Of a stretch of 64,000 bases of DNA, positions 10,329 to 27,122 are shown piece after piece; the stretch's first letter is position 1, and the number at the start of each line of letters is the position of its first letter. Origin of the DNA: Kaistia algarum (lineage in GTDB: Bacteria > Pseudomonadota > Alphaproteobacteria > Rhizobiales > Kaistiaceae). The notes beneath the pieces are model-generated. The model searched no databases. It saw nothing but the letters and a program-made list of their open reading frames with translations, and was not told where the DNA came from. Both the position numbers and the translations under genes were made by a program. Location of the stretch: assembly GCF_026343945.1 (NCBI RefSeq), contig NZ_JAPKNJ010000001.1:1550001-1614000 (forward strand). The letters are read 5' to 3'.

Positions 10329-10846
10329 TCAACCTGGCGGCGGGGTTTCCGGCGCCGCCTCGATCGGGCTCTCCGGGCGTACAGGCCGGCGGGATTGCCG
10401 CTTCGCCTCGCGGCTGCGGCGGCCGATATGCGGGGTCTTGGCCCAGTGATGCGGAGCGACGACAAGCTGGAAGAAGGCGCGGTAGCACGCGAGCGACAAG
10501 AGAAGCCAATAGGCCGGCAGGAAGATCAGCGCGCCGGCGGGCCGACGGCTGCGGCGCATATGGAACGTCATCGAGGCGAGCAGGGCGAAGACGCAATAGG
10601 CCGCGACGAAATTGAAGAGGTTGATGATGATCATGCCGGCGACGAGCGGGCTGTTCCCCCGCCAGAGCAACGCCGGATCGAACAGCAGGAAGAGCGCGGT
10701 CACGAGATAGATCGGATACACCCCGGCAGCGACGATAGAGCCGAGCGAGGTCAGGACGAATCCGGCGAAACGCCGGGTGCCGATCTCGCGCCAGAGGCGG
10801 AGCGGCTGACGCATATGGACCAGGAAGGTCTGCATCCAGCCTTTCA
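10329..10846 (-). pseudogene. C-terminal piece of an interrupted family 2 glycosyltransferase
   Basis: The reading frame continues from KGWMQTFLVHMRQPLRLW, the segment that normally follows QxxRW in processive membrane glycosyltransferases. It then shows about three membrane spans (around residues 27-57, 65-92 and 103-125) and a basic, proline-rich tail. The N-terminal catalytic piece is at 25,758-27,122, so the 15 kb element has split one gene. A TTG at 10847 could in theory start translation of this piece, without catalytic residues. Confidence 0.9.
10832..10846. repeat. attL core of the 15 kb element
   Basis: GCATCCAGCCTTTCA at this end matches GCATCCAGCCCTTCA at 25790-25804 in 14 of 15 positions. 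In both copies the complementary strand reads Leu-Lys-Gly-Trp-Met in the glycosyltransferase frame. Recombination between them would rejoin QRTRWLKGWM to QTFLVHMRQP in frame. The 10-bp identical part (GCATCCAGCC) is the likely exchange region. Confidence 0.75.
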
Positions 10847-10980
10847 AGATCGCTTCCGCACGATGCGCGTAGATTCCTGATCGTTCCTCATCGATCGATA
10901 AATTGGCGAAAAATCAATTGATTACGAGGATTTTAGATTTCTAATAATTCTTTTTCGATCCGGGAATAGCCGCTATTTTT

Positions 10981-10999
10981 GTTGCGATGGTGTTGCGAT
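10981..10999 (+). repeat. Left arm-type integrase sites (two GTTGCGAT copies)
   Basis: GTTGCGAT at 10981-10988 and 10992-10999, an 11-bp period, lies between the core and the integrase start. The same pair in the same orientation and period is at the right end (25696-25714). One-helical-turn spacing suits arm-type sites of a tyrosine recombinase. Confidence 0.6.
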
Positions 11000-11042
11000 A
11001 GGATTGCTGCGGGCTCTAGCGCAACAGGTTCGGGAGGCCGGA

Positions 11043-12302
11043 ATGGTCGAAAAAGGTGGCTCGGGGAAGACGCGGCCGGCTCGGCCGCTGACTGGACCAA
11101 TCGTCGATAAATTGAAGGGCGAGGGCGAGGCGTACCGAGTTCCGGACACCCGTGCGCAAGGGCTGGCGATCCGGGTCGCAGTAGGAGGCACGAAGACCTG
11201 GGACCTTGCATTTCGAATACAGGGGACCGGTCGGACGCGCCGGATGTCGCTGGGCAAGTTTCCAGGCATCTCGGTCGAAGATGCGCGCCGACGCGCTCGC
11301 GAACTCGTCGAGGCGGGTCAGCAGGGTCGCGACCTCGTGGTTGAGGAGCGGGATCTGGCGCGCGAGGAGGCTCGTCAGCTCTCGGTCAGCGCGCTGATCG
11401 ACGAATACGTGAAGAGACGCGTGAAGGGCCGGCTGCGGACCGCGAAGGAGATCGAGGCGCGCCTGAAGCGCGGCCTCAATGATATTCTCGATATGCGCGC
11501 GAAGGACGTAAGACGACGGGACGTTCGCGATTTGCTGGACGCCTGCGCTGACGAAGGGCTCTTGCGGGAGGCGGAGAAGCGGCGACAGGTAAGTCGAGCG
11601 TTCTTCGGCTGGGCTCTCTCCGTCGACTATATCGAGATCGATCCTACCGCCGGTCTGAAGGCGTACGATCCCGGCACACCGCGAGATCGAGTGCTCTCCG
11701 CAAACGAGATCAAGGCGCTCTGGAACTGGCTCGGCGACCTGCCGCCTGACCATGCTGACGTTATGCGTCTTCAACTGCTCCTTGGCGCTCGTGTGGGCGA
11801 GATCGGCGGGATGCGGAAGGATGAGGTCGATGTAGAGGCATGGACCTGGACCCTGCCCGCGGCGAGATCGAAGAACAAAAAGGCCCGCATCACACCCCTC
11901 GTCGGCGCCGCTCGGGCTATCGTCGAGGTGCGGATTGGAAGCCGAGGCGCGCTGTTCACCACAGAAGGCGGGATTGCATTGAAGGCGACGCATATTGGGA
12001 CGGCGCTTAGCCACCGAAAGAACCGACTTCCAATCGCGCATTTCAGAACTCACGATCTTCGCCGAACCGTCGCCACCGGCCTCGCGGACCTAGGCATTTC
12101 GCTGGACCTCGTCGCGGCAGTTCTCGGGCATGAAGCTGGAAGTTCGAGCACGCGAACGCTCGCGCGGCACTATCTCCGAACCGACGCTGTCGACAGGAAG
12201 AAGGTTGCGCTGGAGGCGTGGGATGCGCGGGTCCGCGCGATCCTGGCGGGCGACGCTGATCTGCCGGCCAACGTGGTGTCGATCACCGCAAACGCCCGGT
12301 AG
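11043..12302 (+). CDS. int: Tyrosine integrase with N-terminal arm-binding domain
   Basis: A 419-residue site-specific recombinase that inserts and excises the element. The N-terminal arm-binding domain (about 1-90) has the phage/island signature GLAIRVAVGGTKTWDLAFR and MSLGKFPGISVEDARRRARE. The catalytic domain shows Arg in LLLGARVGEIGGM, Lys in ARSKNKKARITP, the HxxR pair in HFRTHDLRR, His in VLGHEAG and the tyrosine nucleophile in ARHYLR. The ATG at 11043 follows GGGAGG; a TTG at 11004 is in frame but overlaps the arm repeats. It is transcribed inward from attL. Confidence 0.95.
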   Translation: MVEKGGSGKTRPARPLTGPIVDKLKGEGEAYRVPDTRAQGLAIRVAVGGTKTWDLAFRIQGTGRTRRMSLGKFPGISVEDARRRARELVEAGQQGRDLVVEERDLAREEARQLSVSALIDEYVKRRVKGRLRTAKEIEARLKRGLNDILDMRAKDVRRRDVRDLLDACADEGLLREAEKRRQVSRAFFGWALSVDYIEIDPTAGLKAYDPGTPRDRVLSANEIKALWNWLGDLPPDHADVMRLQLLLGARVGEIGGMRKDEVDVEAWTWTLPAARSKNKKARITPLVGAARAIVEVRIGSRGALFTTEGGIALKATHIGTALSHRKNRLPIAHFRTHDLRRTVATGLADLGISLDLVAAVLGHEAGSSSTRTLARHYLRTDAVDRKKVALEAWDARVRAILAGDADLPANVVSITANAR

Positions 12303-12362
12303 TGGGGCCTTCGCATCGGAACGCTTACCGATGACGCGATTTTTCTTCTTGGGCAATACAAC

Positions 12363-12471
12363 ATTTTCCAACCCTAAAAACGCGATTAATATCAAAGATA
12401 AGGATACGGCGCTAAAATTATCTTCATTTCCTGCCATGTCGAATTTTGTCTCAATGTAATTTTCCAACCCT
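12363..12471. repeat. 13-bp direct repeat pair upstream of the regulator gene
   Basis: ATTTTCCAACCCT occurs at 12363-12375 and again at 12459-12471, 96 bp apart, in the AT-rich 234-bp gap between int and the AlpA-like gene. Both copies are identical. They may be operator sites for the AlpA-like protein or replication iterons recognised by the ATPase next door. Nothing else coding is seen in this gap. Confidence 0.5.
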
Positions 12472-12536
12472 TGCAACGGATTTACATCGAATTACGTTCG
12501 CGATTGTTCTTCTGCTTTCATTGAAGGAACCGCGAC

Positions 12537-12758
12537 ATGAACGAGCACGTCGACCGCCTTTTGCGTCCCGAGGAAGCTGCGCAAGAGTTGCAGAACACAG
12601 CCGGCACTTTGGCCAAATGGAGAATGCAAAGCGTCGGACCGAAGTTCGTCCGGGTCGGCCGGTCGATCCGTTACAGAAAAAGCGACATTGAACGGTGGCT
12701 CCAGTCGCGCACCGTCGCGACCGCGGAAGAGCCGATCGGTCAGCGGGCGAGTGCGTGA
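12537..12758 (+). CDS. AlpA/excisionase-like helix-turn-helix regulator
   Basis: A 73-residue protein of the MerR-like HTH_17 type: LLRPEEAAQELQNTAGTLAKW forms the helix-turn-helix and VRVGRSIRYRKSDIERWLQS the wing and last helix. Such proteins act as excisionases or as activators of int in satellites (AlpA). The ATG follows GAAGGA. It stands 12 nt before the RepA-like gene, so the pair is probably one early operon. Confidence 0.8.
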   Translation: MNEHVDRLLRPEEAAQELQNTAGTLAKWRMQSVGPKFVRVGRSIRYRKSDIERWLQSRTVATAEEPIGQRASA

Positions 12759-12770
12759 GGTCTTTTTGCT

Positions 12771-13823
12771 GTGGAGATCATCAGCGCCGTCGACTTGATG
12801 GCCCGGACGTTCCCTCCTGGCCGTTTCATCATTCCTGGCATCTTGCCTGCCGGCCTGACTTTGCTGGCAGGCCGACCAAAGATCGGAAAGTCGTGGCTCG
12901 CGCTGGGGATGTCGCTCGGCGTGTCGTCGGGCGACGACGTACTCGGCCGCCCGGTGGATGCTGGCCGCGTTCTGCACCTTGCCCTTGAAGACGGCCCAAG
13001 GCGACTTAAGGACCGCCTCGGTCGAATGCTCGGCGGGCGCCTGCCGAGCAAACGCCTCGACTTTGTGACCCAGATCGCGCCGCTCGACGCGGGTGGCACC
13101 GAAGCCATCCGCAAATGGATTGAGACCGCCCCGGAGCCGCGGTTGGTCGTTGTTGATGTGTTCGAGCGTGTCCGCCCGAAAGGGGATAGGTCCGGACGGC
13201 TCTATCAGGACGACTACGCTTCGGTCCTGCCGCTCAAGAAAATCGCTGACGACTACGGCGTGGCGGTTGTCGCAGTCACGCACACTCGCAAGTCGGACGC
13301 AGAGCTTGATCCGCTTGATGCGGTCAGCGCGACAACTGGACTAACCGGCGCGGCGGACAACGTGCTCATTCTTGCGCGCGGCCCCGAGGGCGCCGCCATC
13401 TATGGCCGAGGCCGTGATGTCGAGGAGATCGATCTTGCCCTCCGTTTCGAAGGAGCGCGCGGCCTGTGGCGCGCGCTCGGCGACCGGGAAGATGTCAACC
13501 GGTCCGACATTCGAAACGCGATCCTGAAAGTTCTCCGGGCGGCCGTGGAGCCGCTTGGCCCGGCGGAGATCGCAAAGCAGGCCGGTGCGGACCCTGGCAA
13601 TGTTCGTGTTCGGCTGGGAGCCATGGTCTCGGCCGGCGAGATCGAGAAGATTGGCCGGGGCCTATACTCTACCCCCGTAACACCCGATACATTAGATACC
13701 TTCCCCTCTCTCTCTGAAAGTAACGATAGTTACGAATGTAACGGGGGCGAGAGGGTCCCGCGCCCGCGCGCCAAGACGGCGCAGCGCGTTAGCGACGCGA
13801 TGCGCCCCGAGACCGCATCGTGA
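12771..13823 (+). CDS. RepA-like AAA ATPase (hexameric helicase family)
   Basis: A 350-residue P-loop ATPase of the RecA/RepA type. Walker A is LAGRPKIGKSWLAL near residue 34, and Walker B is RLVVVDVF near 126. The motif AVVAVTHTRK near 170 is the typical sensor His segment, and DNVLILAR follows. The last hundred residues hold a winged-helix segment (PAEIAKQAGADPGNVRVRL). Phage and satellite relatives act as replicative helicases. The GTG start is 12 nt after the regulator gene, and the stop overlaps the next start (GTGA). An acidic, proline-containing tail follows the winged helix. Confidence 0.85.
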   Translation: MEIISAVDLMARTFPPGRFIIPGILPAGLTLLAGRPKIGKSWLALGMSLGVSSGDDVLGRPVDAGRVLHLALEDGPRRLKDRLGRMLGGRLPSKRLDFVTQIAPLDAGGTEAIRKWIETAPEPRLVVVDVFERVRPKGDRSGRLYQDDYASVLPLKKIADDYGVAVVAVTHTRKSDAELDPLDAVSATTGLTGAADNVLILARGPEGAAIYGRGRDVEEIDLALRFEGARGLWRALGDREDVNRSDIRNAILKVLRAAVEPLGPAEIAKQAGADPGNVRVRLGAMVSAGEIEKIGRGLYSTPVTPDTLDTFPSLSESNDSYECNGGERVPRPRAKTAQRVSDAMRPETAS

Positions 13824-14182
13824 CCGCTCCAACTATTCTCGCCGAGGCCGTGCGCGAGCTTGCCGATGCGCAACGCGCCGAGGACGCCGCCACCGATTGT
13901 CGGCGTCGAGCATTCGAGCGGGTGCTCCAACTCGCCCTCGGTCAACCTGAGAACGCCGTAGACACCCCCGCGGCCTGGCCGCCCGATCCGGCCACGGTTG
14001 ATCTCAACGAGCGCGATGCTGGCGGAAGGAAGGTCTGGTTGACCGCAACCGAGGTCGGAGGCCTAGCGAAGGTCGACCAGTCAACCGTCCGCAAGTGGGC
14101 AAAGCACTGCGAAATTTCCGTCACCATCGGCGGCCGGGTCTATTTTCATCGCAGCCGGACCATGAACCGGACCGGCCGATAG
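13820..14182 (+). CDS. Small helix-turn-helix protein
   Basis: A 120-residue protein starting with GTG in a GTGA overlap with the ATPase gene, so translation is coupled. Residues 1-45 are a helical segment rich in Ala and Arg. The C-terminal part, VWLTATEVGGLAKVDQSTVRK followed by WAKHCEISVTIGGRVYFHRS, looks like a MerR-type DNA-binding domain. A regulator of the element is likely; no named family was recognised. Confidence 0.65.
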   Translation: MTAPTILAEAVRELADAQRAEDAATDCRRRAFERVLQLALGQPENAVDTPAAWPPDPATVDLNERDAGGRKVWLTATEVGGLAKVDQSTVRKWAKHCEISVTIGGRVYFHRSRTMNRTGR

Positions 14183-14258
14183 CCGCCCGTTTTGCCTCTT
14201 TTGCCCGGCGATTTCCGCGCCGCCGGGCGGCAAGATCGCAGTCCAATCGGAGCCTGCG

Positions 14259-15248
14259 ATGATCAGCCAACCCTTCCTCGAAATTCTGCCGCCCGCGAGC
14301 CGCGCCAAGATCGCGCGGCTCGACGAAGACCGCCGCGCCGCGGCATCGCTCGCGTTCGACGCCGCGGAGAATTTTCGCTCCGCTGCTCACGAATATTTGC
14401 GCGTCGATGCGGCGGTCCGCGCGAAGATCGCGGCTGCGTACCCCCGCGAACTCGAAGCTACCGCCGGCCCGGCGCCGGCTGGGACCATCGGCCGCCAGAT
14501 CGATTGGCGTGGCTATGAGCAGCAGCTCCGCAAGCTGCCCGATGCCTGGAACGCCAGCCCTTTCACATGGCGTCGCAGTGCGCTGCCCGAATTGGCTCGT
14601 CTTCAGGAGGCCGCTACGCGCCGCGCCGCGGAGCTTGAGGGCTTCGCCGTCCTCGGCGCCATCGAGAGCTGGCTGAGGCGCGCCGCCAATGCCGGCGAGG
14701 GACTGAAGAGCGCGAAGCCGGTCGCGGTTCCGGATGGCGATAAGCCCGGTGTCGTCGCCGCTTGCCGCCGCAAACTTGCCGAACTGGACGCTGGTTGGAT
14801 CGTCACTGAGGGCGCGCCACTGCCGGTGGCCGACATGCGGGCCGGCCTGTCCGCCGCGCTCGACCGCATCGCCGATCGCGGTGAGCCGGTGCTCGATCCG
14901 CGCCGCCGCGATGATGACGTGTTCGGCTTCACGGCGCTGTTCAGACAGCTCTATGTGTCGACCGGCGGCGGCAGGACCGCGGCGGTCGGTGACGGCGGTG
15001 TCTCGACGCTGGTTTGGCTCTTCCGAACCGAAATCGAAGAGAAACTCGTCGCGCTTCTGCCCCGCCAGGACGCGCCCGGCGCGCTGAACGAAAACCAACG
15101 CGAAGCGAACCTCGCCGAGATCGCTGCGGCGCGGCTCGAATGCGAACGGATCGAGGAAGCCGCGATCGTGAAGGCCGCCGCCGGTGGCCTCGTCATTTCG
15201 CGCCGACGCGACGCTGATCCGCGCGCCATCCTGGAGGTCGATGCCTGA
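14259..15248 (+). CDS. Hypothetical protein before the S49 protease gene
   Basis: A 329-residue, mostly helical protein of unknown family (start MISQPFLEILPPASR). It is rich in Ala, Arg and Glu, with no membrane segment or recognised motif. The position directly ahead of the S49/scaffold gene, whose start overlaps its stop codon (ATG 15241, stop 15246-15248), ties it to the assembly operon. In a phage this slot would hold portal or head-tail genes. I see no portal signature, and its size is too small. Confidence 0.7.
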   Translation: MISQPFLEILPPASRAKIARLDEDRRAAASLAFDAAENFRSAAHEYLRVDAAVRAKIAAAYPRELEATAGPAPAGTIGRQIDWRGYEQQLRKLPDAWNASPFTWRRSALPELARLQEAATRRAAELEGFAVLGAIESWLRRAANAGEGLKSAKPVAVPDGDKPGVVAACRRKLAELDAGWIVTEGAPLPVADMRAGLSAALDRIADRGEPVLDPRRRDDDVFGFTALFRQLYVSTGGGRTAAVGDGGVSTLVWLFRTEIEEKLVALLPRQDAPGALNENQREANLAEIAAARLECERIEEAAIVKAAAGGLVISRRRDADPRAILEVDA

Positions 15249-16545
15249 AATGCCGGGCCAGCTCGTCCATATCGCAGACCGGCTCTTCGGCCGGCCGCTC
15301 TTCGTGCATCCGCAGAAGGCGGAAGTGGCCGCAGCGGTTCTCCGCGAGCGGATCGGCACCGGCCTGACCATCGAGGCTCCGCATGGCGAGGTCGAGGCCG
15401 GGATCGAGGCGAGCCGGTTTAGCGGGACGCGGCGTGGCCCGGACGGGAACTACAGCGTCGTTCGCAAGCAAGACGGCGTGGCGATGATCCCCGTGATCGG
15501 ATCGCTGGTCAATCGCGGGCTCTGGCTCGACGCTTACAGCGGAATGACGAGCTACGAAGGCATCGCCGCCCAAGTCAAAGCCGCCGCTGCCGATCCCGAC
15601 GTGAAGGCGATCCTGCTGGACATCGACAGCCCCGGCGGTGAAGCGACGGGCATGTTCGGCCTTGCCGCTGCGATCCGGTCAGTCCGCGACGCCAAGCGGG
15701 TCGTGGCGGTGGTCAACGACATGGCGGCGAGCGCTGCCTTCGGCATCGCGGCCTCGGCCGACGAAATCGTGATCTCGCCGACCTCCATCGTGGGCTCGAT
15801 CGGCGTCGTTCTGCTTCATCTCGATCGATCCGCGGAAATGGCTCAAAAGGGCATCCGCGCCACGCTGATCCATGCCGGGGCGCACAAGGTTGATGGCCAC
15901 CCGTTCGGCCCGCTGAGCGCCGAGGTCGCGGCCGACATGCAGAAGAGCGTCATGACGTTCTACGACCGCTTCGTCGAAACGATCGCGGAGGGCCGCCAGG
16001 GCAGGCTCACCGCCGAGCAGGCGCGCGCCACCGAAGCGCGAACCTATATTGGTGCCGAGGCGATCAAGGCCCGGTTGGCCGATCGGATGGGCACGTTCGA
16101 CGCCGTGCTCGCCGAGCTGATCGCCCGGCCCAACAAGTCCCAGCGAACCACCCGGCACCGGCCCGCATCCGCGCCGCCCGCCCCTCAGAAAGGAAGCAGC
16201 ATGAACCAGAACTATCAGAACGACGAGAGCTTCGCCGCCGGCCGAGCCGCCGGTGTCGCCGAAGAGCGCCAGCGGATCAGCTCGATCTTGGCCCTTCCCG
16301 AGGCGGCGGGCCGCGAGAAGCAGGTCTCCGCGCTGATCGCCGCCGGCACCGACGCGGAAAACGCGAAGCTCGTCCTCGACGCCGCTGGCCCGGCCGCCCC
16401 GAAGCGGCCGAGCCTCACCGAGAGGATGGCCGAATACGAGCTCGAGAATAAAGCTCTCGGCGCCAGTGGAGGTAGAGGCCCCAACACGCCCTCGGCATCG
16501 TGGGACAAGCACGTCGAGCGCCAGAACGCGCGTCTCGGCGAGTGA
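15241..16545 (+). CDS. S49 family capsid protease with C-terminal scaffold domain
   Basis: A 434-residue protein in the lambda C/Nu3 layout. Residues about 80-290 are the S49 protease: VAMIPVIGSLVNRG, LLDIDSPGGEATG, the nucleophile Ser in NDMAASAAFGIA, TSIVGSIGVV and the Lys region HAGAHKVDGHPF. Residues from about 320 are the helical scaffold domain, which can also be made alone from 16201. The ATG at 15241 follows GGAGG and overlaps the previous stop. It is clearly homologous to the prophage protease at 61,549-63,024, with close agreement through the protease core. In phages the protease cleaves scaffold during head assembly. Here no capsid gene accompanies it. Confidence 0.9.
   Translation: MPEMPGQLVHIADRLFGRPLFVHPQKAEVAAAVLRERIGTGLTIEAPHGEVEAGIEASRFSGTRRGPDGNYSVVRKQDGVAMIPVIGSLVNRGLWLDAYSGMTSYEGIAAQVKAAAADPDVKAILLDIDSPGGEATGMFGLAAAIRSVRDAKRVVAVVNDMAASAAFGIAASADEIVISPTSIVGSIGVVLLHLDRSAEMAQKGIRATLIHAGAHKVDGHPFGPLSAEVAADMQKSVMTFYDRFVETIAEGRQGRLTAEQARATEARTYIGAEAIKARLADRMGTFDAVLAELIARPNKSQRTTRHRPASAPPAPQKGSSMNQNYQNDESFAAGRAAGVAEERQRISSILALPEAAGREKQVSALIAAGTDAENAKLVLDAAGPAAPKRPSLTERMAEYELENKALGASGGRGPNTPSASWDKHVERQNARLGE
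16201..16545 (+). CDS. Nested scaffold protein, internal in-frame start
   Basis: An in-frame ATG at 16201 (MNQNYQNDESFAAGRAAG) is preceded by AAAGGAAGCAGC, a good ribosome site inside the S49 gene. It would give a 114-residue, largely helical protein equal to the scaffold domain, as lambda Nu3 is made inside gene C. The prophage homologue shows the same arrangement at 62049. Confidence 0.65.
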   Translation: MNQNYQNDESFAAGRAAGVAEERQRISSILALPEAAGREKQVSALIAAGTDAENAKLVLDAAGPAAPKRPSLTERMAEYELENKALGASGGRGPNTPSASWDKHVERQNARLGE

Positions 16546-16892
16546 AGGACACCAACGCGATCGGCGGGGCGCTCCACCCCATGGACCCGGTCGCCGAAGC
16601 GGCGGTGCCGAACTCTTCGGCACCGCCAACCATCGCCACCAGGATCTCCGAGATGAGCAGCGACGACTTCGATCGAGGATATGCCGCTGGCCTCGCCGCC
16701 GCCCGCGCCTTCGCCGAAGCGCTAGCAGGGCAGCCGGAAAGCGTCGGACGCGAGCGGGTGGCACTTACGATGATGCGCCTAGACGTTTCGCTCCAGGTCG
16801 CCATCGCGGTACTCGCCGCGACGCCTGCGATCATACCCGACCCGTCTCTCCCGCTCGACATTCCCCACGTCCCCATCATCGCAATCCACTGA
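16542..16892 (+). CDS. Small hypothetical protein in the assembly operon
   Basis: A 116-residue frame starting with GTG in a GTGA overlap with the protease/scaffold stop. An internal ATG at 16653 (MSSDDFDRGYAAGLAAARA) is an alternative start. The segment DFDRGYAAGLAAARAFAEAL resembles the helical start of scaffold-type proteins. The end is hydrophobic and proline-rich. Function unknown; it sits between scaffold and tape measure. Confidence 0.55.
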   Translation: MKDTNAIGGALHPMDPVAEAAVPNSSAPPTIATRISEMSSDDFDRGYAAGLAAARAFAEALAGQPESVGRERVALTMMRLDVSLQVAIAVLAATPAIIPDPSLPLDIPHVPIIAIH

Positions 16893-19585: not shown

Positions 19586-19878
19586 TGCACGACGAGAAAG
19601 CCCGTCAGGGCGCCGAGGTCTTGGTGGCGATTTCTCTGATGCTCGATCTCGTCAGCGCGGCGCTCCGCGCCGAACTGCTCGCCGTCCCCGCCCGCGTCAC
19701 GACCGATCAGAAACTTCAGCGCCACATCGAGATCGAGATGACACGCGCCGTGAACAAAATCGCCGAGAGCCTCGACCGCTCGGTCGCCTCGATCCGGGCG
19801 GGCGGCGATCCGGCCGACGAGATCGCCGCACTGCGAGGCGCCGAGATCGCGGCGCAGGCGCGGCCCAAAGCGCACTGA
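19585..19878 (+). CDS. Small helical hypothetical protein
   Basis: A 97-residue helical protein (MHDEKARQGAEVLVAISLML) whose ATG overlaps the tape measure stop (TGATG). No family recognised. The N-terminal third is hydrophobic enough to suggest helix packing but not a membrane span. It is part of the tape measure-small terminase operon, 19 nt before the next gene. Confidence 0.6.
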   Translation: MHDEKARQGAEVLVAISLMLDLVSAALRAELLAVPARVTTDQKLQRHIEIEMTRAVNKIAESLDRSVASIRAGGDPADEIAALRGAEIAAQARPKAH

Positions 19879-19897: not shown

Positions 19898-20407
19898 ATG
19901 CCGAACGACCCGCGCGCCGCCACGACCCTCACTGTCGCGCAGGCCGCGCGCCTCCTTGAGGTGTCTGAAACGTGGGTCCGCAGGCTGCGCCGCGATGGCT
20001 ATCTCCCGCGCCTGCCGGACGGTCGCCTCCCGATCGTCGCGGCGGTGCAGGGCTATATCCGCTTCCTCCAGGATGACGAGCGCCGCGCCTCGAAATCGGC
20101 CGCCACTCATCGCCTTCAGGAGGCGAAAGCTGAGGAGGTCCGCGCGCGGATCGCCCAGAAATACGATGAGCTGATGCCGATCGAGGACGCTGAAGCGGTG
20201 TTGGATGATCTCCTCACAACGGTCCGTGCGAGGCTCGCCGGCTTGCCGGCCAAGATCACGAGCGATCCAGCGACGCACAGCCGGATCAAGCAGGAGTTCC
20301 ACGACGCTCTGGCGGAAATGACCGCGGCCAGCAAGGCCATGGTCGAGGCTTTGCGAACAGGCGCCCCGTTTCCCTCTACGCCCGGCGGCGGCGCGCAGCG
20401 CGCCTGA
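19898..20407 (+). CDS. Nu1-like terminase small subunit
   Basis: A 169-residue protein in the lambda Nu1 layout. It has an N-terminal winged helix (VAQAARLLEVSETWVRRLR, then DGYLPRLPDGRLPI), a basic linker (RLQEAKAEEVRARIAQKYDE), and the conserved C-terminal segment MPIEDAEAVLDDLLTTVRAR followed by LAGLPAKI. Small terminases recognise cos/pac DNA and hand it to the large subunit. No large subunit exists in the element, so it would have to work with a helper's enzyme, as in known satellites that redirect packaging. Family assignment is good; role is inference. Confidence 0.78.
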   Translation: MPNDPRAATTLTVAQAARLLEVSETWVRRLRRDGYLPRLPDGRLPIVAAVQGYIRFLQDDERRASKSAATHRLQEAKAEEVRARIAQKYDELMPIEDAEAVLDDLLTTVRARLAGLPAKITSDPATHSRIKQEFHDALAEMTAASKAMVEALRTGAPFPSTPGGGAQRA

Positions 20408-20524: not shown

Positions 20525-21157
20525 ATGCCCAAGCCTAGCCAGATCGATACCGCCGCCATCGCCCACGCGAAGCGCTTCGATGTCACGATCTTCCTCGGGA
20601 CGGGCCGCTACCACACCGCGAGCCGCGACACCTTGGAGCGCGCTCGCGCCATAGCGCCGGAGATCACCGCGGAGGTCGCCAACGGCCGCAAGGCGATGAT
20701 CTATGCGGTCGCGGAGGGCCGCTCGGTCTTCGTTCCTGACAGCTATCGACCGAGCAACGAAGGAGACCAGATCATGCCCGCTCTGAACCCCAAGCCGGCG
20801 CCCGCGGCGCGGAAGGGCCGCGCCAAAGCCGCCGTGGCGCCTGAGGAAGCCGCTCAGCCCGTTCAGCCTATCGCCGAGCCCGCCAAGGCGCCGAATGCCG
20901 CCAGCGGCGGCCGCAGGGCCGCCGCCGAAGCGGCGCAGCGCGGCGAGCTGCCGACACCGCCCGACTTCACTGCCGAGACGCACAAGCGTTTCCGCCCGAA
21001 GCTCGCACGCCTCGTCGAAATGGCGAAAGCCGGTGACATCGCAGCGCTCCGGGCCGAGCCGATCAATCCGGTCTCGTCCAGCCCGAAGGCGATGGAGCGC
21101 TACCGCGATCTCGCCGTCACCGCTCTCGAAGTGCGCGCCGCACGGGGCGCCGCCTGA
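20525..21157 (+). CDS. Hypothetical protein, two-part
   Basis: A 210-residue protein starting MPKPSQIDTAAIAHAKRFDV after GGAG. The first 80 residues look like a compact alpha/beta domain. A Pro/Ala-rich linker of about 50 residues and a C-terminal helical domain (TAETHKRFRPKLARLVEMAK) follow. The C-terminal part resembles small domains seen in rhizobial mobile-element proteins, but I cannot name a family. It is the first gene after a 117-bp gap downstream of the small terminase. Confidence 0.6.
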   Translation: MPKPSQIDTAAIAHAKRFDVTIFLGTGRYHTASRDTLERARAIAPEITAEVANGRKAMIYAVAEGRSVFVPDSYRPSNEGDQIMPALNPKPAPAARKGRAKAAVAPEEAAQPVQPIAEPAKAPNAASGGRRAAAEAAQRGELPTPPDFTAETHKRFRPKLARLVEMAKAGDIAALRAEPINPVSSSPKAMERYRDLAVTALEVRAARGAA

Positions 21158-21199
21158 TCCTCCTGCATCATCCCATCATCAGAGAAAATGGAGCCCAGC

Positions 21200-21490
21200 A
21201 TGATCAACATCGGCGGACGAGACTACCTCACCGAGGCGAACGCACCCGTGACCCTCCTCAACCTCATCGCCGACCTCACGCCGATCCGCGACCTCATCCG
21301 CGCCGGATGGAGCGCAGCGGCGGGAGGGAACGACGCGGTACAGACTACCCTCAGCATCGCGGAAGGGCTGCTCGATGACGTGATGGAGCGCATCAGCAGT
21401 GAGATTGCCGAGGCACGGCCGAAGCCGGAGGCGCCGATCAGTGGCACGCGGCCCGATCTCTGCGTCGATCCTGGAAGCGCAGTCGAATGA
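21200..21490 (+). CDS. Small hypothetical protein
   Basis: A 96-residue protein (MINIGGRDYLTEANAPVTLL). The start at 21200 is preferred because GGAG stands 6 nt before it; an in-frame ATG at 21188 exists. It looks helical. No family recognised. It lies in the same orientation between two other unknown genes of the element. Confidence 0.5.
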   Translation: MINIGGRDYLTEANAPVTLLNLIADLTPIRDLIRAGWSAAAGGNDAVQTTLSIAEGLLDDVMERISSEIAEARPKPEAPISGTRPDLCVDPGSAVE

Positions 21491-21593
21491 AGTCACTGAG
21501 CTGACACGCGAAACCCGGCTGGACCGCACAGCGCGCTCACCCTAGCGTCGAGAGCGTCTGGTGACCCGCCTGCTCCAACTGAAGGAAAACGAA

Positions 21594-21821
21594 ATGCCCG
21601 AAATTATCTTCGAAGAGCCTTCACCCGCCGCTGCCGCCGTCCAGCGCGAGGTCTTCATCGACCGGATGGCGGAGCACCTGATCGCTACCGATACGGACCC
21701 CAGCGACCGCGACGCGGTGCTGCGGACCCTCAAGGCCGGAACGTATCCGGTCCACGTCATCGACCCGCTCTCAGGCGAGGCAGCGCAGGAAGCAATCCGC
21801 AGAAGGCTGCCCGCGGTCTAG
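21594..21821 (+). CDS. Small acidic hypothetical protein
   Basis: A 75-residue acidic protein (MPEIIFEEPSPAAAAVQREV) preceded by GAAGGA. No family recognised. It is the last gene before a strong terminator, so it closes the structural operon of the element. Small acidic proteins at this place are often inhibitors or modulators, but nothing in the sequence shows that here. Confidence 0.5.
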   Translation: MPEIIFEEPSPAAAAVQREVFIDRMAEHLIATDTDPSDRDAVLRTLKAGTYPVHVIDPLSGEAAQEAIRRRLPAV

Positions 21822-21843
21822 CCCAATGCACCCACCGCCCAAG

Positions 21844-21874
21844 AAGGCCCGCCGCGCCACGCGGCGGGCCTTTT
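21844..21874 (+). terminator. Rho-independent terminator closing the assembly operon
   Basis: GGCCCGCCGCG (21846-21856), loop CCA and CGCGGCGGGCC (21860-21870) form a perfect 11-bp GC stem followed by TTTT. It lies 24 nt after the last small gene and separates the assembly operon from the toxin-antitoxin/cargo genes. Confidence 0.9.
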
Positions 21875-21929
21875 GCTATTTGCGAACCGCAGTATTGCGT
21901 CTATATTTGCAATTAGCTAACACGAGCCC

Positions 21930-22184
21930 ATGAAGCAGATCACCTTCCACAGCGAGGCGGTGAAGGCGCTGACACGGATGCCAGCCAACACGGCGAGGCT
22001 GATCCGGTCCAAGATCGCGCAATACGCCGCCGATCCGGCTTCGCTCGCCAACAATGTGAAGGCGCTGAAGGGCCGGGAGGGCTATCTCCGCCTTCGCGTC
22101 GGCGACTGGCGGGTGATCTTCACGGAAGATGGCGAGGTGATCGCCATCATCAGGATCGCGCCGCGCGGCGGCGCCTATGAATAG
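21930..22184 (+). CDS. RelE/ParE-family toxin
   Basis: An 84-residue RelE-fold protein: KQITFHSEAVKALTRMPANTA at the start, LRLRVGDWRVIFTEDGEVIA in the core, then IIRIAPRGGAYE. The central Arg residues and aromatic end suit an mRNA-cutting RelE type. It is followed 9 nt later by an XRE antitoxin, the toxin-first order of HigBA-like pairs. It probably stabilises the element or provides phage defence. Confidence 0.85.
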   Translation: MKQITFHSEAVKALTRMPANTARLIRSKIAQYAADPASLANNVKALKGREGYLRLRVGDWRVIFTEDGEVIAIIRIAPRGGAYE

Positions 22185-22193
22185 GAGGTCAGG

Positions 22194-22565
22194 ATGAGCG
22201 TGCAGACCATCACCGCCCCGAACGGGGACCGGCTCGTCGTCCTGCCCGAGGCCGATTATCTCGCCATGCAGGAGGCGCTGGAGGACGCTGCCGATATCGC
22301 GGCCGTCGACGCCTATGAGCGGCAGAAGGCGGCCGGCGAAGCGGTCATGATCCCGGCCGCGTTCGTCGACCGCATCCTCGACGGCGAGAGCAAGGTCCGC
22401 GTCTTCCGCGAGTTCCGCGGCCTGTCGGCGCGCGATCTCGCCGGCAAAGCGGAGATCAGCCCCTCCTATCTCTCGCAGATCGAAAGCGGCGCCCGTGACG
22501 GCAGCTTCGATACGATGAAGCGGATCGCCGCAGCCCTCGGCATCAGCGTCGATGATCTGGCGTAG
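22194..22565 (+). CDS. XRE-family antitoxin
   Basis: A 123-residue antitoxin partner. The first half (MSVQTITAPNGDRLVVLPEADY) resembles a Phd/YefM-like element. The second half is an XRE helix-turn-helix (LSARDLAGKAEISPSYLSQI) ending in GISVDDLA. The ATG follows AGGAGGTCAGG. It would bind the toxin and repress the pair's promoter. Confidence 0.85.
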   Translation: MSVQTITAPNGDRLVVLPEADYLAMQEALEDAADIAAVDAYERQKAAGEAVMIPAAFVDRILDGESKVRVFREFRGLSARDLAGKAEISPSYLSQIESGARDGSFDTMKRIAAALGISVDDLA

Positions 22566-22573
22566 GCTAGGCA

Positions 22574-23488
22574 TTGAGCGTCGCGCGCCGCCATCACTAT
22601 GTCCCGCGGTTTCTCTTGCGCCAGTGGGTCGTCCCATACGGCAATCATGGCAGCAAGCTCCTCGGTCACTATTGGGACCCTGCGCGGGAGCGCATGCGGT
22701 TGTTTCCGTGTAGCCCAAAGCAGGTCTGCTATCGCGAGGACCTGTTCGGCCTCCGCGGGAAAACTCTTCCACCGGACGCCATCGAGCGTCGCTTCTTTTC
22801 CGCGATAGACGACAGCGCGGCTGTCGCGCATCGGAAGCTTCTATCCGAAGGGGTCGCTTCGCTTACAGTCGATGAACGGAGCGATCTCGTCCGGCTGATT
22901 TTGTCATTGGAGGTTCGGCGGCCAGCCAATATCGAGAAACTAGTCTCGGATGGGGCTGAGAGTTTCCGCGACGGCCTAGATCGCGATCCTGAGATCGCTG
23001 CCGCCTTTGCGAAGCATGGACTATCGATGAGCCCCTCGGAGTACTACGAGCAGGGGTTGGGATATCCGCTTTCTGATCGAGCGATGCTCTTGGTGCAGCA
23101 TATAACAAATAGCCGAAACTCCGGACTGAAACTCGCGAGCTTTATCTGGAGGCTGCGCCGGCTCGACCCCCGACAGGGCTCTTTCGTCCTCAGCGATCGA
23201 CCACTGTACCGGTCGGCTGGGATCGACGCCCCGAACGCGCTTTGGTCCCTGCCGTGTAGTCCCTATTCGGTCCTGCTAATGTCGCCGAGCGAGCATGTGC
23301 TCCAGCACCTACTCGCTGTATCGGATAGTGCAATCGTGAGGGCGGTCAATGCCGACAGCGCCAACCAAGCGGACAAGTACTTGTTTGGCACTCGCCAGGA
23401 GGGCGAGTGGCTTGAGCGCCGACTTCGCGCGAAATATGAGCGCGAGGTAGCATCAGACGCCGGACCCAAAAGGGATGCCGCGCGCTGA
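22574..23488 (+). CDS. DUF4238 family protein
   Basis: A 304-residue DUF4238 protein, recognised by the N-terminal signature RRHHYVPRFLLRQWV; WRLRRLDPRQGSFVLSDRPL is in the middle. No start other than the TTG at 22574 fits the signature, so a TTG start is chosen. It begins 8 nt after the antitoxin stop. The biochemical role of the family is unknown. It occurs often in accessory regions, so a defence role is possible here. Convergent with the next gene (13 bp apart). Confidence 0.75.
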   Translation: MSVARRHHYVPRFLLRQWVVPYGNHGSKLLGHYWDPARERMRLFPCSPKQVCYREDLFGLRGKTLPPDAIERRFFSAIDDSAAVAHRKLLSEGVASLTVDERSDLVRLILSLEVRRPANIEKLVSDGAESFRDGLDRDPEIAAAFAKHGLSMSPSEYYEQGLGYPLSDRAMLLVQHITNSRNSGLKLASFIWRLRRLDPRQGSFVLSDRPLYRSAGIDAPNALWSLPCSPYSVLLMSPSEHVLQHLLAVSDSAIVRAVNADSANQADKYLFGTRQEGEWLERRLRAKYEREVASDAGPKRDAAR

Positions 23489-23501
23489 AGGTCGGGGAGC
23501 G

Positions 23502-24014
23502 CTAGACCGAGGCGTCTTCTTGGTACGACTTGCGACGGCGGTTCGCGTCATCAAACCATTGGCGGAGTGTCCGCGGAACCGGGGCGTCCATTCGCATATA
23601 GTGGTCAAGCAGCTTGGGGAGTTCCCTTTCAGTGGCCGAGATTTTGTCAAACTCGCGCCTGCGCTCCTTTATTGCCGCACCTCGCTCTTCGCCCCGTAGG
23701 CCGTCAAGCTCATTGGAGATCGAACCCAAGTTGACGATCGCGAGCCAGACATCGTCGAGATATTCATACACTTCCGTGCCGAACAGGAACCTGGCCTCGT
23801 CCAGAACTCGCAAGTAGGCTTTTTCGTCCTCCATTGTCGGCTTCCCGGAAGCGATTATCGGGCGAATTGCCGCTTGCGCATTTCGATAGAATTGAAATCG
23901 GTGCTCAAACAGATCGAGCGCCAGCTTGCGCCGAGCCGTGGTCCATTGGGCAAAAGCGATGTAGACGGCCACGATCGCAATGACCGGTGTCAGCAGTGCC
24001 GCGAACGTCTGCAT
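23502..24014 (-). CDS. Single-pass membrane protein with cytosolic helical domain
   Basis: A 170-residue protein starting MQTFAALLTPVIAIVAVYIA, one membrane span, followed by a charged helical domain (TTARRKLALDLFEHRFQFY onward). The start at 24014 has GGGAGG 7 nt upstream. The membrane anchor followed by a KLALDLFEHRF segment recurs in hypothetical proteins of accessory regions. Function unknown; together with DUF4238 it may be cargo. Confidence 0.65.
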   Translation of the reverse strand: MQTFAALLTPVIAIVAVYIAFAQWTTARRKLALDLFEHRFQFYRNAQAAIRPIIASGKPTMEDEKAYLRVLDEARFLFGTEVYEYLDDVWLAIVNLGSISNELDGLRGEERGAAIKERRREFDKISATERELPKLLDHYMRMDAPVPRTLRQWFDDANRRRKSYQEDASV

Positions 24015-25029
24015 TTGGGCCTCCCGCGCCGCGCATCGTGCGTGCGCCGTGTGAAGAGTGCAAGTAAAAGGAACCTCTCTCTGGCTCTGAGAGAGCGGCC
24101 TTCGATTTCGAAATTGTTGGCCCTCTGCTGTAGCGCAAGGCATCACGTGGGCGGGTTGATCGGCGGGACCTCGACGGACGAGGGCGCTCCTCCCGCGCCG
24201 TCCGGCTGGAGCCGCAGTCAGACCAGTCCATTCCTGATTGCCCTCGTCCTGAACCTGGGGCGCATTCGTACGCCGGATCGCTGCTCGGTCCGCCTCGGCG
24301 GCCCTGGCGTCCGGATCAAAGCCGAGCGCGTGCGCCCCACGCCGAAGTTCGAGCCGAATTCTCACGCCGAGCCTGGAAACGCTTCGCCCTTGCAACGACC
24401 GCAGCACATCATCCGTCTCCGTACGCCATGTTGTCACCGTCCCCGAGGGGCCAAGAACCTATAGCTCGGGGAGGGCGGGGCGCCCCGCCCAGCGGGGGCG
24501 CCCCGCATCGCCGGCCACAGCTCATCCCGCAATCGCCATTGGCAATCGAGCCTTTGACAATCGGCCGATCGATCGATCTCCGCCCTTGATCAAATGCGGC
24601 GGGGAACGCTTCCGATGCATATCGGGCCGCCTTCCGCTAAATCCGCAATCCCCAAGCCAAAGCCCGCCTATAGCCTTCGCCCGCAATCGCCTTTGGAAAG
24701 GGAGCCGATATCGCCAATTGGCCGATCGATAGCAGGCTTCATCAAATCCGGCAGAGAAGGCCGCCAAGGCCGATCCGATCGCCTTGGCCTCGATCCCTAT
24801 CACGAAGCGGCAAGCCGGCCATTGGCCTTCTCCCGCGATCCATCGCGCCTTCTCGATCGAAGGGCAGCCTACCCCCCCTCCCCCCCTTGGTTCCTTTCGG
24901 GCCGATTGCCTGCCTTGCGGGGCCGCCGCCCCCGATCTTCGAGCGTTTTTCGGCTTTTCGATTTCGCAGTTTGGTTTGGCCTCGTGAGGGCTTAAATGGC
25001 CGATCTCAGCCAATCCGGCCGGGGATCAG
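24015..25029. other. Non-coding block with GC palindrome and repeats
   Basis: About 1 kb between two minus-strand genes, with no convincing gene. 24473-24490 is a perfect 18-bp palindrome (GGGCGGGGCGCCCCGCCC), followed at 24492-24506 by a second near-palindrome of the same type. From 24530 on, degenerate copies of a unit with CGCAATCGCC...TTGG, GCCGATCGAT and CATCAAAT-like words recur near 24530-24600 and 24680-24750, and GCCAATTGGC is a 10-bp palindrome at 24713-24722. A pyrimidine run stands near 24870-24890. This could be an origin, a packaging (cos) site or a structured RNA. Confidence 0.5.
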
Positions 25030-25722
25030 CTAGTTCCCCCAGCGTGGCGCCCGCCATCCCGCGGCGAGCGCCTCGCCTTCGGTGCAGAACCACCGCTCCC
25101 CGTGCGCCTCGTCGATCTTGGTGCGCGTATACCAAGGCGACCACGGCGCGTGATAGATGCGCTCGTCGTCCCGATTGATGTTCCCCTTGATCGGGCACCC
25201 CTTCGGCGCGACCTGCTGCTCCACATCCCAGCGATGCGCCCGGAAGTCCCACGGGGCCTCCGTCTCGGCCTGCCACACCCCGACGCGCTTCGCGTGAGCC
25301 GCATCCTCGGCGCCGGCATAGTCGAGGCTGTATTTGCGGAACGACCACGCCAAGCCCTTATCGACAAGAGAGCCGCCGATGTCGACGCCATCGGCGAAGC
25401 ACACCGCCAAGGTGCGCCCGTAGTCGTCGAGGCCGCGGCTGTCACACCTCACCTCGCCGGACCCTGCCAGATCCTGCATCGCCCCGACTGCAGCCTTCCC
25501 GCACGGCCACGTCCCGCCTCCCGCCTTCGCGCATTTCTGGCCGGCCTCGGGTGCGTCAATCCCCGCGATGCGATAGGTGGTCCCGTCGATCCATAGCGTA
25601 TCGCCATCAACGACGTGAACCTTGGTCGAGGCCGCTGCTGTGGCGAAGCCGAACAAGGCCGCGAGACAGGACAGCACGGCCGCGATGGATTGCGTGTTGC
25701 GATAGCGTTGCGATATCAGCAT
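25030..25722 (-). CDS. Secreted thermonuclease-family (SNase) protein
   Basis: About 230 residues. A signal peptide-like segment (SIAAVLSCLAALFGFATAAA) is followed by the staphylococcal nuclease domain: VHVVDGDTLWIDG, IAGIDAPEAGQKC, CDSRGLDDYGRTLAVC and VDKGLAWSFRKY, with the Asp, Arg and Glu-type active-site positions largely kept. A unique C-terminal extension of about 60 residues ends at the stop. The start is uncertain (ATG 25722, or GTG 25734). The first codons contain the right arm repeats of the integrase, so its promoter is close to attR. Exonuclease-like cargo at the end of the element. Confidence 0.85.
   Translation of the reverse strand: MLISQRYRNTQSIAAVLSCLAALFGFATAAASTKVHVVDGDTLWIDGTTYRIAGIDAPEAGQKCAKAGGGTWPCGKAAVGAMQDLAGSGEVRCDSRGLDDYGRTLAVCFADGVDIGGSLVDKGLAWSFRKYSLDYAGAEDAAHAKRVGVWQAETEAPWDFRAHRWDVEQQVAPKGCPIKGNINRDDERIYHAPWSPWYTRTKIDEAHGERWFCTEGEALAAGWRAPRWGN
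25696..25714 (+). repeat. Right arm-type integrase sites (two GTTGCGAT copies)
   Basis: GTTGCGAT at 25696-25703 and 25707-25714, an 11-bp period identical to the left pair. They overlap the first codons of the nuclease gene and lie about 75 bp inside attR. Confidence 0.6.
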
Positions 25723-25757
25723 TAACTCACCCACGAATTTCTAATATCTAATTGATA

Positions 25758-27122
25758 TTATTGACTAAATATCGGACTAGCGCCAAGGCGCATCCAGCCC
25801 TTCAGCCAGCGCGTGCGCTGGGCGAGCCAGAGCTTCGTGGAAAGCGGCGCCTCCTCATAGGTCGGGCGCGTTATCGTCTTCGCCTTCAGGCCGAACCGGG
25901 CGAGGCGGATGCCCATGTCGGCATCCTCGGTGACGTTGTAGGGGTCCCATCCGCCGATTCGTTCCAGTGCCTCGCGGCGGAAATGATTGGAGGTGCCGCC
26001 GAGTGGCAGAGGCAGGTCAAGCGCGGCGAGGAAAGGCAGCAGCGCGTCGAACAGGATCGCATATTCCATGGCGAAGAGCCCGGCCAGGCCGTTCATCTCG
26101 CCATTGTCGATGAGGAGCGGTGCCTGGACGCAGGCGAGCCGCGCGTCGCCCGCGCGAAACGCCGCATAGGCCTCTATCAGCTGTCCCGGATCCGGCCGAT
26201 CCTCGGCGTCATAGACCGTGACGAACTCGCCGCGCACCAGCGGCAGCGCGAAGGCGAGCGCCTTCGGCTTGGTTCGCGGCGCCGCGTCCGGAACGACGAT
26301 CACCTCGAAGGGCGTGGTGAGCGAGAGCTTCTCCAAAGCTCTCGCCGTCGCCCGGTCTCGCGCCTCGATCAGGAACTTGATGTCGAGCCGGTCTCGCGGC
26401 CAGTCGAGCCGGTTCATGGCGCGGACCAGTTCGGGCACCATATGCGCTTCGTCATAAAGCGGCAGCAGGATCGTATAGACCGGCAGGCGGGCAGGGTCTG
26501 GAGCCGGCAGCGCCGACGGCGGATTGACCGTGTAATCGAGCACGAGGCTGAGCGCCATCATGCGCAGGACGATCAGTGTGGAGAACAGCGCTCCGGCCAC
26601 GAGGTCGAGCGGCACGAGCGCGTGCCATCCGCTGGTCGCCACGGCGAGGAGGAGCGCCAGCGCCAGCCCGGCGAAGACACATGCCTGCGCGGGCGTCAGC
26701 AGCCGGCGTGCCGAAAAGGCCGCATCCAGCCTCTCGAGCCGGCGAAGGGCCTCGTCCAACAACCGCGTCGAGCCGGTCGAGAACAGCATGCGGCGGATCG
26801 CGTCGGGCGTCGACACGACAAGGCGCTCGCGCAGCTCCGGCATCTTTTCGAACGCCGCCGCAAGGCTTTCCATCTCGGCCTCATCCGGCGCGATCACCAG
26901 ACGGCCGGCACCTTTCCCGCGCACCATCGCCGCGCGACCGACTTGTATCGCCGCCACGAGCGCCTTGCTCTCGCCGTCTACCGCCTCCTGCGGCAGCACG
27001 ACGCGGCCGAGGCTTTCCGGCGCCGGCTCGAAGGGCAGGCCAAGCCGGAAGGCGCGAAGCGCAAAGGGGCGCTCCGCCTCGGGCTCGTCCTCGGCAAGGA
27101 GGTAATTTCCGAGTATCCCCAC
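25758..27122 (-). pseudogene. N-terminal catalytic piece of the interrupted glycosyltransferase
   Basis: A processive family 2 glycosyltransferase (cellulose synthase-like) cut by the element. A GspE-N-like domain occupies about residues 50-150, two membrane spans lie near 158-200, and the GT2 domain follows with TILLPLYDEAHMVPELVRA, the first Asp region VVPDAAPRTKPKAL, YDAEDRPDPGQL, the TED motif NVTEDADMGIRL and QRTRW. The host frame ends inside the attR core (25790-25804); a short foreign tail (RLGASPIFSQ) then leads to a stop. The GTG at 27122, after GGCGGGGG, is the likely start. All catalytic residues but none of the C-terminal membrane spans remain, so it is probably inactive. Confidence 0.88.
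25790..25804. repeat. attR core of the 15 kb element
   Basis: GCATCCAGCCCTTCA, matching the left core with one mismatch. Glycosyltransferase coding sequence lies to its right, element sequence to its left. Confidence 0.75.

What the first reader, a model, noticed from the sequence alone, without database searches (positions are those of the whole stretch)
10832..25804. Candidate undescribed alphaproteobacterial phage satellite
One 15 kb element holds integrase, AlpA-like regulator, RepA-like ATPase, S49 protease/scaffold, tape measure and Nu1-like small terminase. It has no large terminase, portal, major capsid, tail tube or lysis genes. The genes from 12.5 to 20.4 kb are mostly overlapping or closely spaced and show no frameshift, unlike a decaying prophage. 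Known satellites (P4, PICI, cfPICI) combine integration, replication and packaging redirection with few structural genes. A tape measure plus S49-scaffold set in such an element is not a combination I recognise as described.
Basis: partly seen in the sequence, partly recalled or inferred. Interest (0 to 1): 0.88.

Follow-up and report, generated by a model that had tools for sequence, protein, structure and literature searches.

The report
Phage satellite carrying virion assembly rulers
A 15 kb parasite of bacterial viruses sits in this genome and, instead of a full virus kit, carries mainly genes that decide how a virus particle is sized and filled; related elements in other bacteria point to a new satellite family.

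Summary
A 14,958 bp element (10832-25802) splits a glycosyltransferase gene that is joined in 12 of 13 congeners. It has int, AlpA-like, AAA_25 ATPase, S49 protease/scaffold, tape measure (TMP) and small terminase (TerS) genes; no large terminase, portal, major capsid, tail tube or lysis gene was detected. It is no lone deletion product. An unknown 329 aa protein, X, marks a family: 29 further loci, 27 from the same order. Of 30 loci, 15 have a TMP, 16 an S49 or scaffold gene, 13 a TerS, 7 all three; a large terminase was detected in 1, a major capsid in 1, a portal in 2. Eighteen are delimited, all under 15 kb. X was not found in phage collections. In a genome with five copies, integrases differ while TMP, TerS and scaffold, where present, are under purifying selection. 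Best reading: a satellite family that supplies assembly-determining proteins and takes bulk virion proteins from a helper. A TMP in a satellite is already known (Vibrio PLEs, PMC12987554); this family, X and the combined kit appear new. No induction or particle data exist.

The parts
10832..10844 (.). left attachment core (13 bp)
   Evidence: Flanks align to the unbroken glycosyltransferase gene of G020 with a 13 bp overlap
10329..10847 (-). C-terminal piece of the split glycosyltransferase gene (outside the element but for its first bases)
11004..12302 (+). tyrosine integrase
   Evidence: PF00589 2.2e-18, Arm-DNA-bind_3 1.1e-13
12537..12758 (+). AlpA-like excisionase/regulator
   Evidence: HTH_17 3.3e-9; phrog_66 6.9e-8
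12771..13823 (+). AAA_25 RepA/helicase-like ATPase
   Evidence: PF13481 8.9e-29; related in 5 other X loci by phmmer
13820..14182 (+). small HTH protein
   Evidence: HTH_17 2.8e-4, below Pfam cut-off
14259..15248 (+). X: 329 aa marker protein of the family, unknown function, helical
   Evidence: No Pfam or PHROG family at E<=0.1; 13 proteins, itself included, by profile in a 5.8-billion-protein set; model pLDDT 87; no confident fold match
15247..16545 (+). S49 head maturation protease with scaffold-like C-terminus
   Evidence: PF01343 9.2e-32; phrog_53 2.6e-112
16500..16892 (+). 130 aa protein of unknown function just before the TMP
   Evidence: ORF position only
16919..19585 (+). tail tape measure protein, 888 aa
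   Evidence: PF10145 1.4e-14; phrog_28 4.1e-40; relatives
19582..19878 (+). 98 aa protein, overlaps the TMP stop
   Evidence: ORF position only
19898..20407 (+). small terminase (Nu1-type by recall; phrog_57)
   Evidence: phrog_57 1.6e-18
20525..21157 (+). 210 aa protein shared with one other X element (L135)
   Evidence: phrog_24512 3.3e-10; L135 8e-30
21188..21490 (+). 100 aa protein near the operon end
   Evidence: ORF
21561..21821 (+). 86 aa protein at the operon end
   Evidence: ORF
21844..21872 (+). terminator-like hairpin after the operon
   Evidence: 13 bp perfect inverted repeat followed by TTTT; not listed by the consensus terminator scan
21930..22565 (+). ParE/RelE-like toxin and HTH antitoxin (cargo)
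   Evidence: PF05016 2.6e-8; phrog_7241 1.3e-30
22574..23488 (+). DUF4238 protein (cargo)
   Evidence: PF14022 2.5e-24
24526..24752 (.). direct repeats of 12-27 bp, several pairs at 152-157 bp spacing; candidate replication origin
   Evidence: function inferred
25030..25734 (-). staphylococcal-nuclease-like protein (cargo)
   Evidence: PF00565 4.2e-11
25790..25802 (.). right attachment core (13 bp)
25758..27431 (-). N-terminal piece of the split glycosyltransferase gene (its frame reaches about 30 bp into the element)
   Evidence: 13 of 13 congeners align only to residue 548-549; 12 of 13 carry both pieces in one frame

Best explanation
The element is a phage satellite of a so far unnamed alphaproteobacterial family marked by protein X. 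SHOWN: site-specific insertion, intact genes in one co-directed run, recurrence in other genomes, usual lack of bulk virion genes, purifying selection in a related genome. INFERRED: on helper induction or infection, AlpA and Int excise it and the AAA_25 protein starts its replication. It then makes only proteins that decide how a particle is built: S49 protease/scaffold (procapsid nucleation and size, perhaps with X, which lies near head genes in most members), TerS (directs packaging to satellite DNA) and TMP (sets tail length and nucleates the tail). Major capsid protein, portal, large terminase, tail tube, baseplate and lysis proteins come from the helper, so that chimeric particles hold about 15 kb.
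For: Insertion and joined site: 12 of 13 congeners. X profile: 16 of 397 order genomes, 8 of 149 of G257's family, 4 of 385 class genomes, already known genomes included. Of 30 loci, 15 TMP, 16 S49/scaffold, 13 TerS, 7 all three. TMPs match unlike families (PF10145, TMP_3, and best or leading PHROGs 794, 8462, 10574), so TMP was probably recruited more than once. In 4 of 5 G257 copies a free 124 aa gene matches only the scaffold end of S49 fusions. dN/dS between G257 copies: TMP 0.12-0.15 (3 copies), TerS 0.07-0.35 (4), scaffold 0.15-0.37 (4), X 0.19-0.44 (5), while integrases are 25-66% identical. X not found in INPHARED by tblastn, in IMG/VR by pattern scan or, for the window's X, in PHROGs. 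Eighteen delimited elements are 7.1-14.97 kb; seven lie within 126 bp (14,845-14,971), from four lineages; p about 0.006 after thinning, under my uniform 7-17 kb null. A resident prophage of about 44 kb gives a ratio of 0.34; known satellites are typically about one third of the helper (PMC10803314, passages). PLE TMPs enter chimeric tails and are needed for full transfer (PMC12987554, passages).
Against: No induction, particle or read data. L099 has a large terminase, L104 a major capsid, L141 and L171 a portal. 7 of 30 loci show no TMP, S49/scaffold or TerS by my models; 3 of those 7 carry another head gene (L096, L099, L104). Counts are conditional on X, the search bait. The S49 frames of L140 and L141 are short (about 160-170 aa). 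The window's att core is 13 bp with one mismatch; six of the 18 delimiting repeats are only 14-17 bp. Element TMP and TerS are not like those of the resident prophage, so the helper is not identified. X's role is guessed from neighbourhood. Between G257 copies the primase-like gene shows weaker constraint (dN/dS 0.31-0.70).
Confidence: 0.85

Rival explanations
1. Deletion-derived prophage remnant: a lambda-like prophage lost its terminase-capsid-tail block and is decaying.
For: S49, TMP and TerS each have relatives in phages or phage-like loci; a survey found that incomplete prophages of non-animal-associated Hyphomicrobiales are enriched for integrase, tail, transposase and protease and poor in head and terminase genes (PMC11080155, passages).
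Against: Same kit with X recurs in other genomes at the same size; TerS lies downstream of TMP, unlike the order in Mae-JY30; frames are intact; purifying selection in a related genome; X not found in phages.
Confidence: 0.08
2. Capsid-forming satellite (cf-PICI-like) or small phage whose capsid and portal are too divergent to detect.
For: L104 carries a major capsid and L141/L171 a portal, so the family borders on capsid-forming types.
Against: In the window no leftover operon protein is long enough for a usual portal or large terminase, and X models as helices.
Confidence: 0.05
3. Domesticated anti-phage island: TMP, TerS and scaffold act as dominant decoys that poison invading phage assembly, without the island being packaged itself.
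For: Tail-assembly interference is a known defence (PMC11364771, PMC10884400; search listings only); the element carries a toxin-antitoxin pair.
Against: Intact integrase/AlpA/replication genes, many integration sites and unlike integrases in one genome suggest ongoing mobility. Satellites can do both.
Confidence: 0.1
4. The X family is a satellite family but TMP and S49 serve another purpose (e.g. exclusion of other phages), and particles use wholly helper-made heads and tails.
For: 15 of 30 loci lack a detected TMP and 14 of 30 lack S49/scaffold.
Against: Recruitment of unlike TMPs and low dN/dS; PLE precedent.
Confidence: 0.25

Closest known systems
[quoted passage not shown]
   Same: Satellite with its own TMP (with tail chaperone, some with a hub) that builds chimeric tails (PMC12987554, passages); PLEs also remodel capsids (PMC10945586, abstract start in a listing)
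   Different: Different host class; here the TMP sits with an S49 protease/scaffold, a TerS and X. PLE proteins were not compared
PICI of Gram-negative bacteria
   Same: Integrase, AlpA, replication ATPase, TerS, about 15 kb, no large terminase or capsid (PICI features recalled)
   Different: S49 protease/scaffold, TMP and X; PICI proteins were not compared
cf-PICI
   Same: Carries some morphogenesis genes; predicted tmp genes exist in some (PMC12987554, passages)
   Different: cf-PICIs (recalled) make their own capsid and packaging machine and take tails; here no capsid, portal or large terminase was detected
P4-like satellites
   Same: Integrase, AlpA, about one third of helper size (recalled)
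   Different: No Psu/Sid/Delta family among Pfam hits (names recalled); carries TerS and TMP
PICMI
   Same: int, alpA, replication gene
   Different: The prototype is about 6 kb, next to fis, without capsid remodelling genes (PMC10803314, passages)
Phages with a related head module, e.g. Mae-JY30 (PP438422)
   Same: Top-listed phage match for both TerS (40%) and S49 (54%)
   Different: 61.7 kb phage with large terminase and portal between those genes and capsid after; it is not among the TMP matches at E 1e-10

Membership tests
Phage satellite (general) | Site-specific integrated element with own integrase/excisionase | tested here: met
Phage satellite (general) | Lacks a complete set of virion genes | tested here: met
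   HMM absence plus a size argument
Phage satellite (general) | Recurs as an element distinct from full prophages | tested here: met
   X in 0 of 66 TMP-related loci
Phage satellite (general) | Packaged and moved by a helper phage | not testable with these tools
   Needs induction or infection
Phage satellite (general) | About one third of helper genome size | tested here: inconclusive
   0.34 of a resident prophage of about 44 kb; that helper is unproven and its left end rests on one 21 bp repeat
PICI | AlpA and TerS with a replication gene (recalled definition) | tested here: met
   the replication gene is an AAA_25 ATPase, no primase domain seen in the window
PICI | Homology to known PICI replication or capsid-redirecting proteins | not tested
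   No PICI reference proteins were compared
cf-PICI | Own major capsid, portal and large terminase (recalled definition) | tested here: not met
P4-like | Psu/Sid/Delta and alpha primase (recalled definition) | tested here: inconclusive
   No such name among Pfam hits at E<=0.1; P4 proteins were not compared directly
PLE | Own TMP built into chimeric tails | tested here: inconclusive
   TMP gene present; incorporation untested
PLE | Homology to PLE proteins | not tested
   No PLE reference fetched
PICMI | int-alpA-prim (DUF3987/DUF5906), no capsid remodelling genes, typically next to fis | tested here: not met
   In a glycosyltransferase gene, carries S49/TerS/TMP, neither primase domain in the window's AAA_25 gene

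The most novel reading that the evidence does not exclude
A satellite class built on one rule: carry only the rulers and nucleators of virion assembly (scaffold/protease, sometimes portal, TerS, TMP, sometimes neck or hub) and steal the bulk polymers and motors, making particles chimeric in both head and tail; X is its hallmark capsid-size or head-nucleation factor, with no relative found in sequenced phages.
Probability: 0.4. Interest if true: 0.88.

Novelty: new variant of a known kind. Interest (0 to 1): 0.74.

Why it matters
Satellites are known for manipulating heads and packaging; PMC12987554 calls PLEs the first family known to alter tail assembly. An alphaproteobacterial family with a TMP in half of 30 loci, from several TMP families, would make tail-ruler piracy a recurrent strategy and allow a comparative test of what a satellite must bring and what it can take. 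Some 'incomplete prophages' counted in Hyphomicrobiales surveys might be such satellites.

Tried and rejected

Rejected: plain decaying prophage; full phage with hidden head genes (see rivals). Integrase comparisons involving L092 used a wrong frame and are replaced. A first wording that all 13 congeners have an unbroken gene was checked and dropped: 12 do, and in G022 the gene departs at the same point, with no C-terminal piece found in the next 40 kb.

Limits of the head-gene search: 121 unassigned proteins of 100 aa or more were listed from 24 loci; 106 went into a set scan whose answers print 25 of 81 PHROG and 25 of 33 Pfam families, so weak hits could be hidden; 14 of the other 15 were scanned singly, and one (L093, 513 aa, helicase-like by eye) was not. 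In L170-L174 only selected proteins were scanned.
Full report
WHAT IS THERE. The window lies at G000:C1:1550001-1614000 of a 5.26 Mb genome. Between 10832 and 25802 an element interrupts a glycosyltransferase gene read on the minus strand. All 13 congeners align to the N-terminal piece only up to residue 548-549. In 12 of 13 the two pieces lie in one frame. In the 13th, G022, the gene departs at the same point and the C-terminal piece was not found in the next 40 kb; an integrase-like frame lies 2.3 kb on, so the site may be a shared integration target.

ANATOMY. Integrase (11004-12302), AlpA-like HTH (12537-12758), AAA_25 ATPase (12771-13823), a small HTH protein, X (14259-15248), S49 head maturation protease with scaffold-like tail (15247-16545), a 130 aa protein, tape measure protein (16919-19585), a 98 aa protein, TerS (19898-20407), a 210 aa protein and two small ones, followed by a hairpin at 21844-21872. 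From the AlpA-like gene on, these are on one strand, overlapping or at most about 120 bp apart. The right arm carries a ParE/RelE-type toxin with HTH antitoxin, DUF4238, an uncertain ORF and an SNase-like gene, plus direct repeats at 24.5-24.75 kb that might be an origin.

WHAT IS MISSING. Of 18 genes scanned, none hit a large terminase, portal, major capsid, tail tube or convincing lysis family. The longest unassigned operon product is X, whose AlphaFold model (mean pLDDT 87, four-sequence alignment) is almost wholly helical, so a usual portal or large terminase does not fit.

RELATIVES OF SINGLE GENES. The TMP search returned 41 proteins, itself included. Of 66 loci around TMP relatives (19 from genome contigs, 47 from IMG/VR, some of them the same contig), 12 hold an S49 match, 5.5-8.5 kb upstream of the TMP (0.4 kb in the window), 2 hold a TerS match and none holds X. 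In annotated phages the top match for both TerS and S49 is Mae-JY30, where they flank terminase and portal genes. The window's TMP had only 4 phage records at E 1e-10, none of them Mae-JY30. So the morphogenesis genes look borrowed from phages, and the TMP from a different source than the head genes.

A FAMILY OF ELEMENTS. X alone finds 4 proteins and its wider profile 13, itself included, all unnamed or 'hypothetical', five of them named as Bradyrhizobium. In whole genomes the X profile rings in 16 of 397 genomes of the order (11 of 397 with the first, narrower profile at a looser cut-off), 8 of 149 of G257's family and 4 of 385 drawn from the class, two of them new. The order is Hyphomicrobiales by inference: an X relative named Bradyrhizobium daqingense lies on a contig as long as that of G061 (7,998,085 bases), and the TMP's named relatives are in Kaistia, Bosea, Methylobacterium and Xanthobacter. 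I fetched every place found other than the window's own: 15 + 9 + 5 loci, 30 with the window. Over those 30: integrase in 26 (not in L090, L138, L141, L143; all but L141 are cut by contig ends), TMP 15, S49 or scaffold 16, TerS 13, at least one of the three 23, all three 7 (window, L091, L094, L095, L103, L138, L140). Against the simple picture: large terminase in L099, major capsid in L104, portal in L141 and L171, a ClpP-type head protease in L096. No locus showed a complete head or tail set in the scans made; their limits are given under Tried and rejected. The five loci were fetched after the idea was formed: L170 has AlpA-X-TerS-TMP, L171 X-portal-S49-TMP-AlpA, L172 X-scaffold, L173 X-S49-TerS, L174 X-TMP with an integrase in two frames.

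MOBILITY AND SELECTION. Eighteen of the 30, the window included, are delimited: eleven by repeats of 19-55 bp, six by 14-17 bp repeats of which four lie at tRNA genes, and the window by the joined-site comparison. G257 holds five copies at five sites. Their integrases are 25-66% identical, while the TMP of three copies is 96-99% identical with dN/dS 0.12-0.15; TerS (4 copies) 0.07-0.35, scaffold (4) 0.15-0.37, X (5) 0.19-0.44, the AAA_25 gene (5) at most 0.08, the primase-like gene (4) 0.31-0.70. Several pairs differ by few changes, so single values are rough.

SIZE. The 18 lengths run from 7,078 to 14,971 bp; seven lie between 14,845 and 14,971, reached by 0 of 20,000 uniform draws from 7-17 kb. 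Keeping one of the six elements of G257's genus, four of 13 still lie within 130 bp, as in 0.6% of draws. The null and the choice of representative are mine, L140 rests on a 17 bp repeat, and 20 kb fetch windows limit what could be seen above about 17 kb. This fits a packaging ceiling near 15 kb.

A POSSIBLE HELPER. A prophage lies in the same contig, from window 40582 to 85021 if a 21 bp repeat of a tRNA-Gly gene marks its ends (44.4 kb); its leftmost 5 kb shows no gene that I recognise as phage. It has a GpA-type large terminase and, by position and size only, portal, capsid and tail genes; its S49 is 45% identical to the element's over 368 columns, but TerS and TMP are unrelated. The element is 0.34 of that size. 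That it is the helper is a guess. GpA-type terminases were found in 8 of 21 genomes examined, G022 (no X) among them.

MECHANISM. The genes kept most often in this family are those that choose: scaffold/protease (head size and maturation), TerS (which DNA), TMP (tail length and nucleation), now and then portal, neck or hub (L138). The genes mostly absent are those used in many copies or as motors. The most likely mode is a satellite that brings the moulds and takes the bricks. In PLEs the satellite TMP is in the virion, tails are chimeric, and tmp deletion cut transfer by 96 and 99% in PLE1 and PLE4 (PMC12987554, passages found by term search). By my reading of the gene tables, X lies within two genes of S49, scaffold, TerS, portal, ClpP-type protease or capsid in 18 of 30 loci, so I suggest it acts in head assembly; this is inference from position and helical shape only.

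NOVELTY. Searches of an open-access library (most answers list only the top 9-25 papers) listed no paper on satellites of Hyphomicrobiales or on a satellite with this gene set; subscription papers and preprints are mostly not held, and the de Sousa 2023 survey could not be read. The kind (phage satellite) is known and satellite TMPs are known since 2026; the family, its marker X and the S49/scaffold-TerS-TMP kit appear new.

Noticed in passing
window 40582-64000, continuing to about 85076 (G000:C1 about 1590582-1635076): A prophage of about 44 kb at tRNA-Gly with a GpA-type large terminase at window 64868-66850, S49 at 61549-63024 and integrase at 83753-84910.
   Followed up: partly
L176 1-1428: In congener G022 the same glycosyltransferase gene departs at the same point as in the window, and an integrase-like frame lies nearby: a second, different insertion at this site is possible.
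   Followed up: partly
L007 1536-14141: In congener G022 a short locus from integrase to tail-like genes with a TMP match and terminase-like genes by eye, no capsid or portal seen by eye, and no X: possibly another kind of satellite.
   Followed up: no
L141 7596-9164 and L171 7310-8887: X is followed by a portal gene, S49 and TMP; no major capsid or large terminase was detected: a portal-carrying variant.
   Followed up: partly
L104 8600-9646: X is followed by a major capsid gene (phrog_29): a capsid-carrying variant.
   Followed up: partly
L094 8918-9292: 124 aa gene matching only the scaffold part of S49 protease/scaffold fusions; the protease domain is not seen in the G257 elements.
   Followed up: partly
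window 12363-12382 and 12459-12478: Two 20 bp repeats (85% alike) between int and the AlpA-like gene, possible regulator sites.
   Followed up: no
L097 16034-17710: Transposase-like gene in a G257 copy that has scaffold but no TerS or TMP.
   Followed up: no
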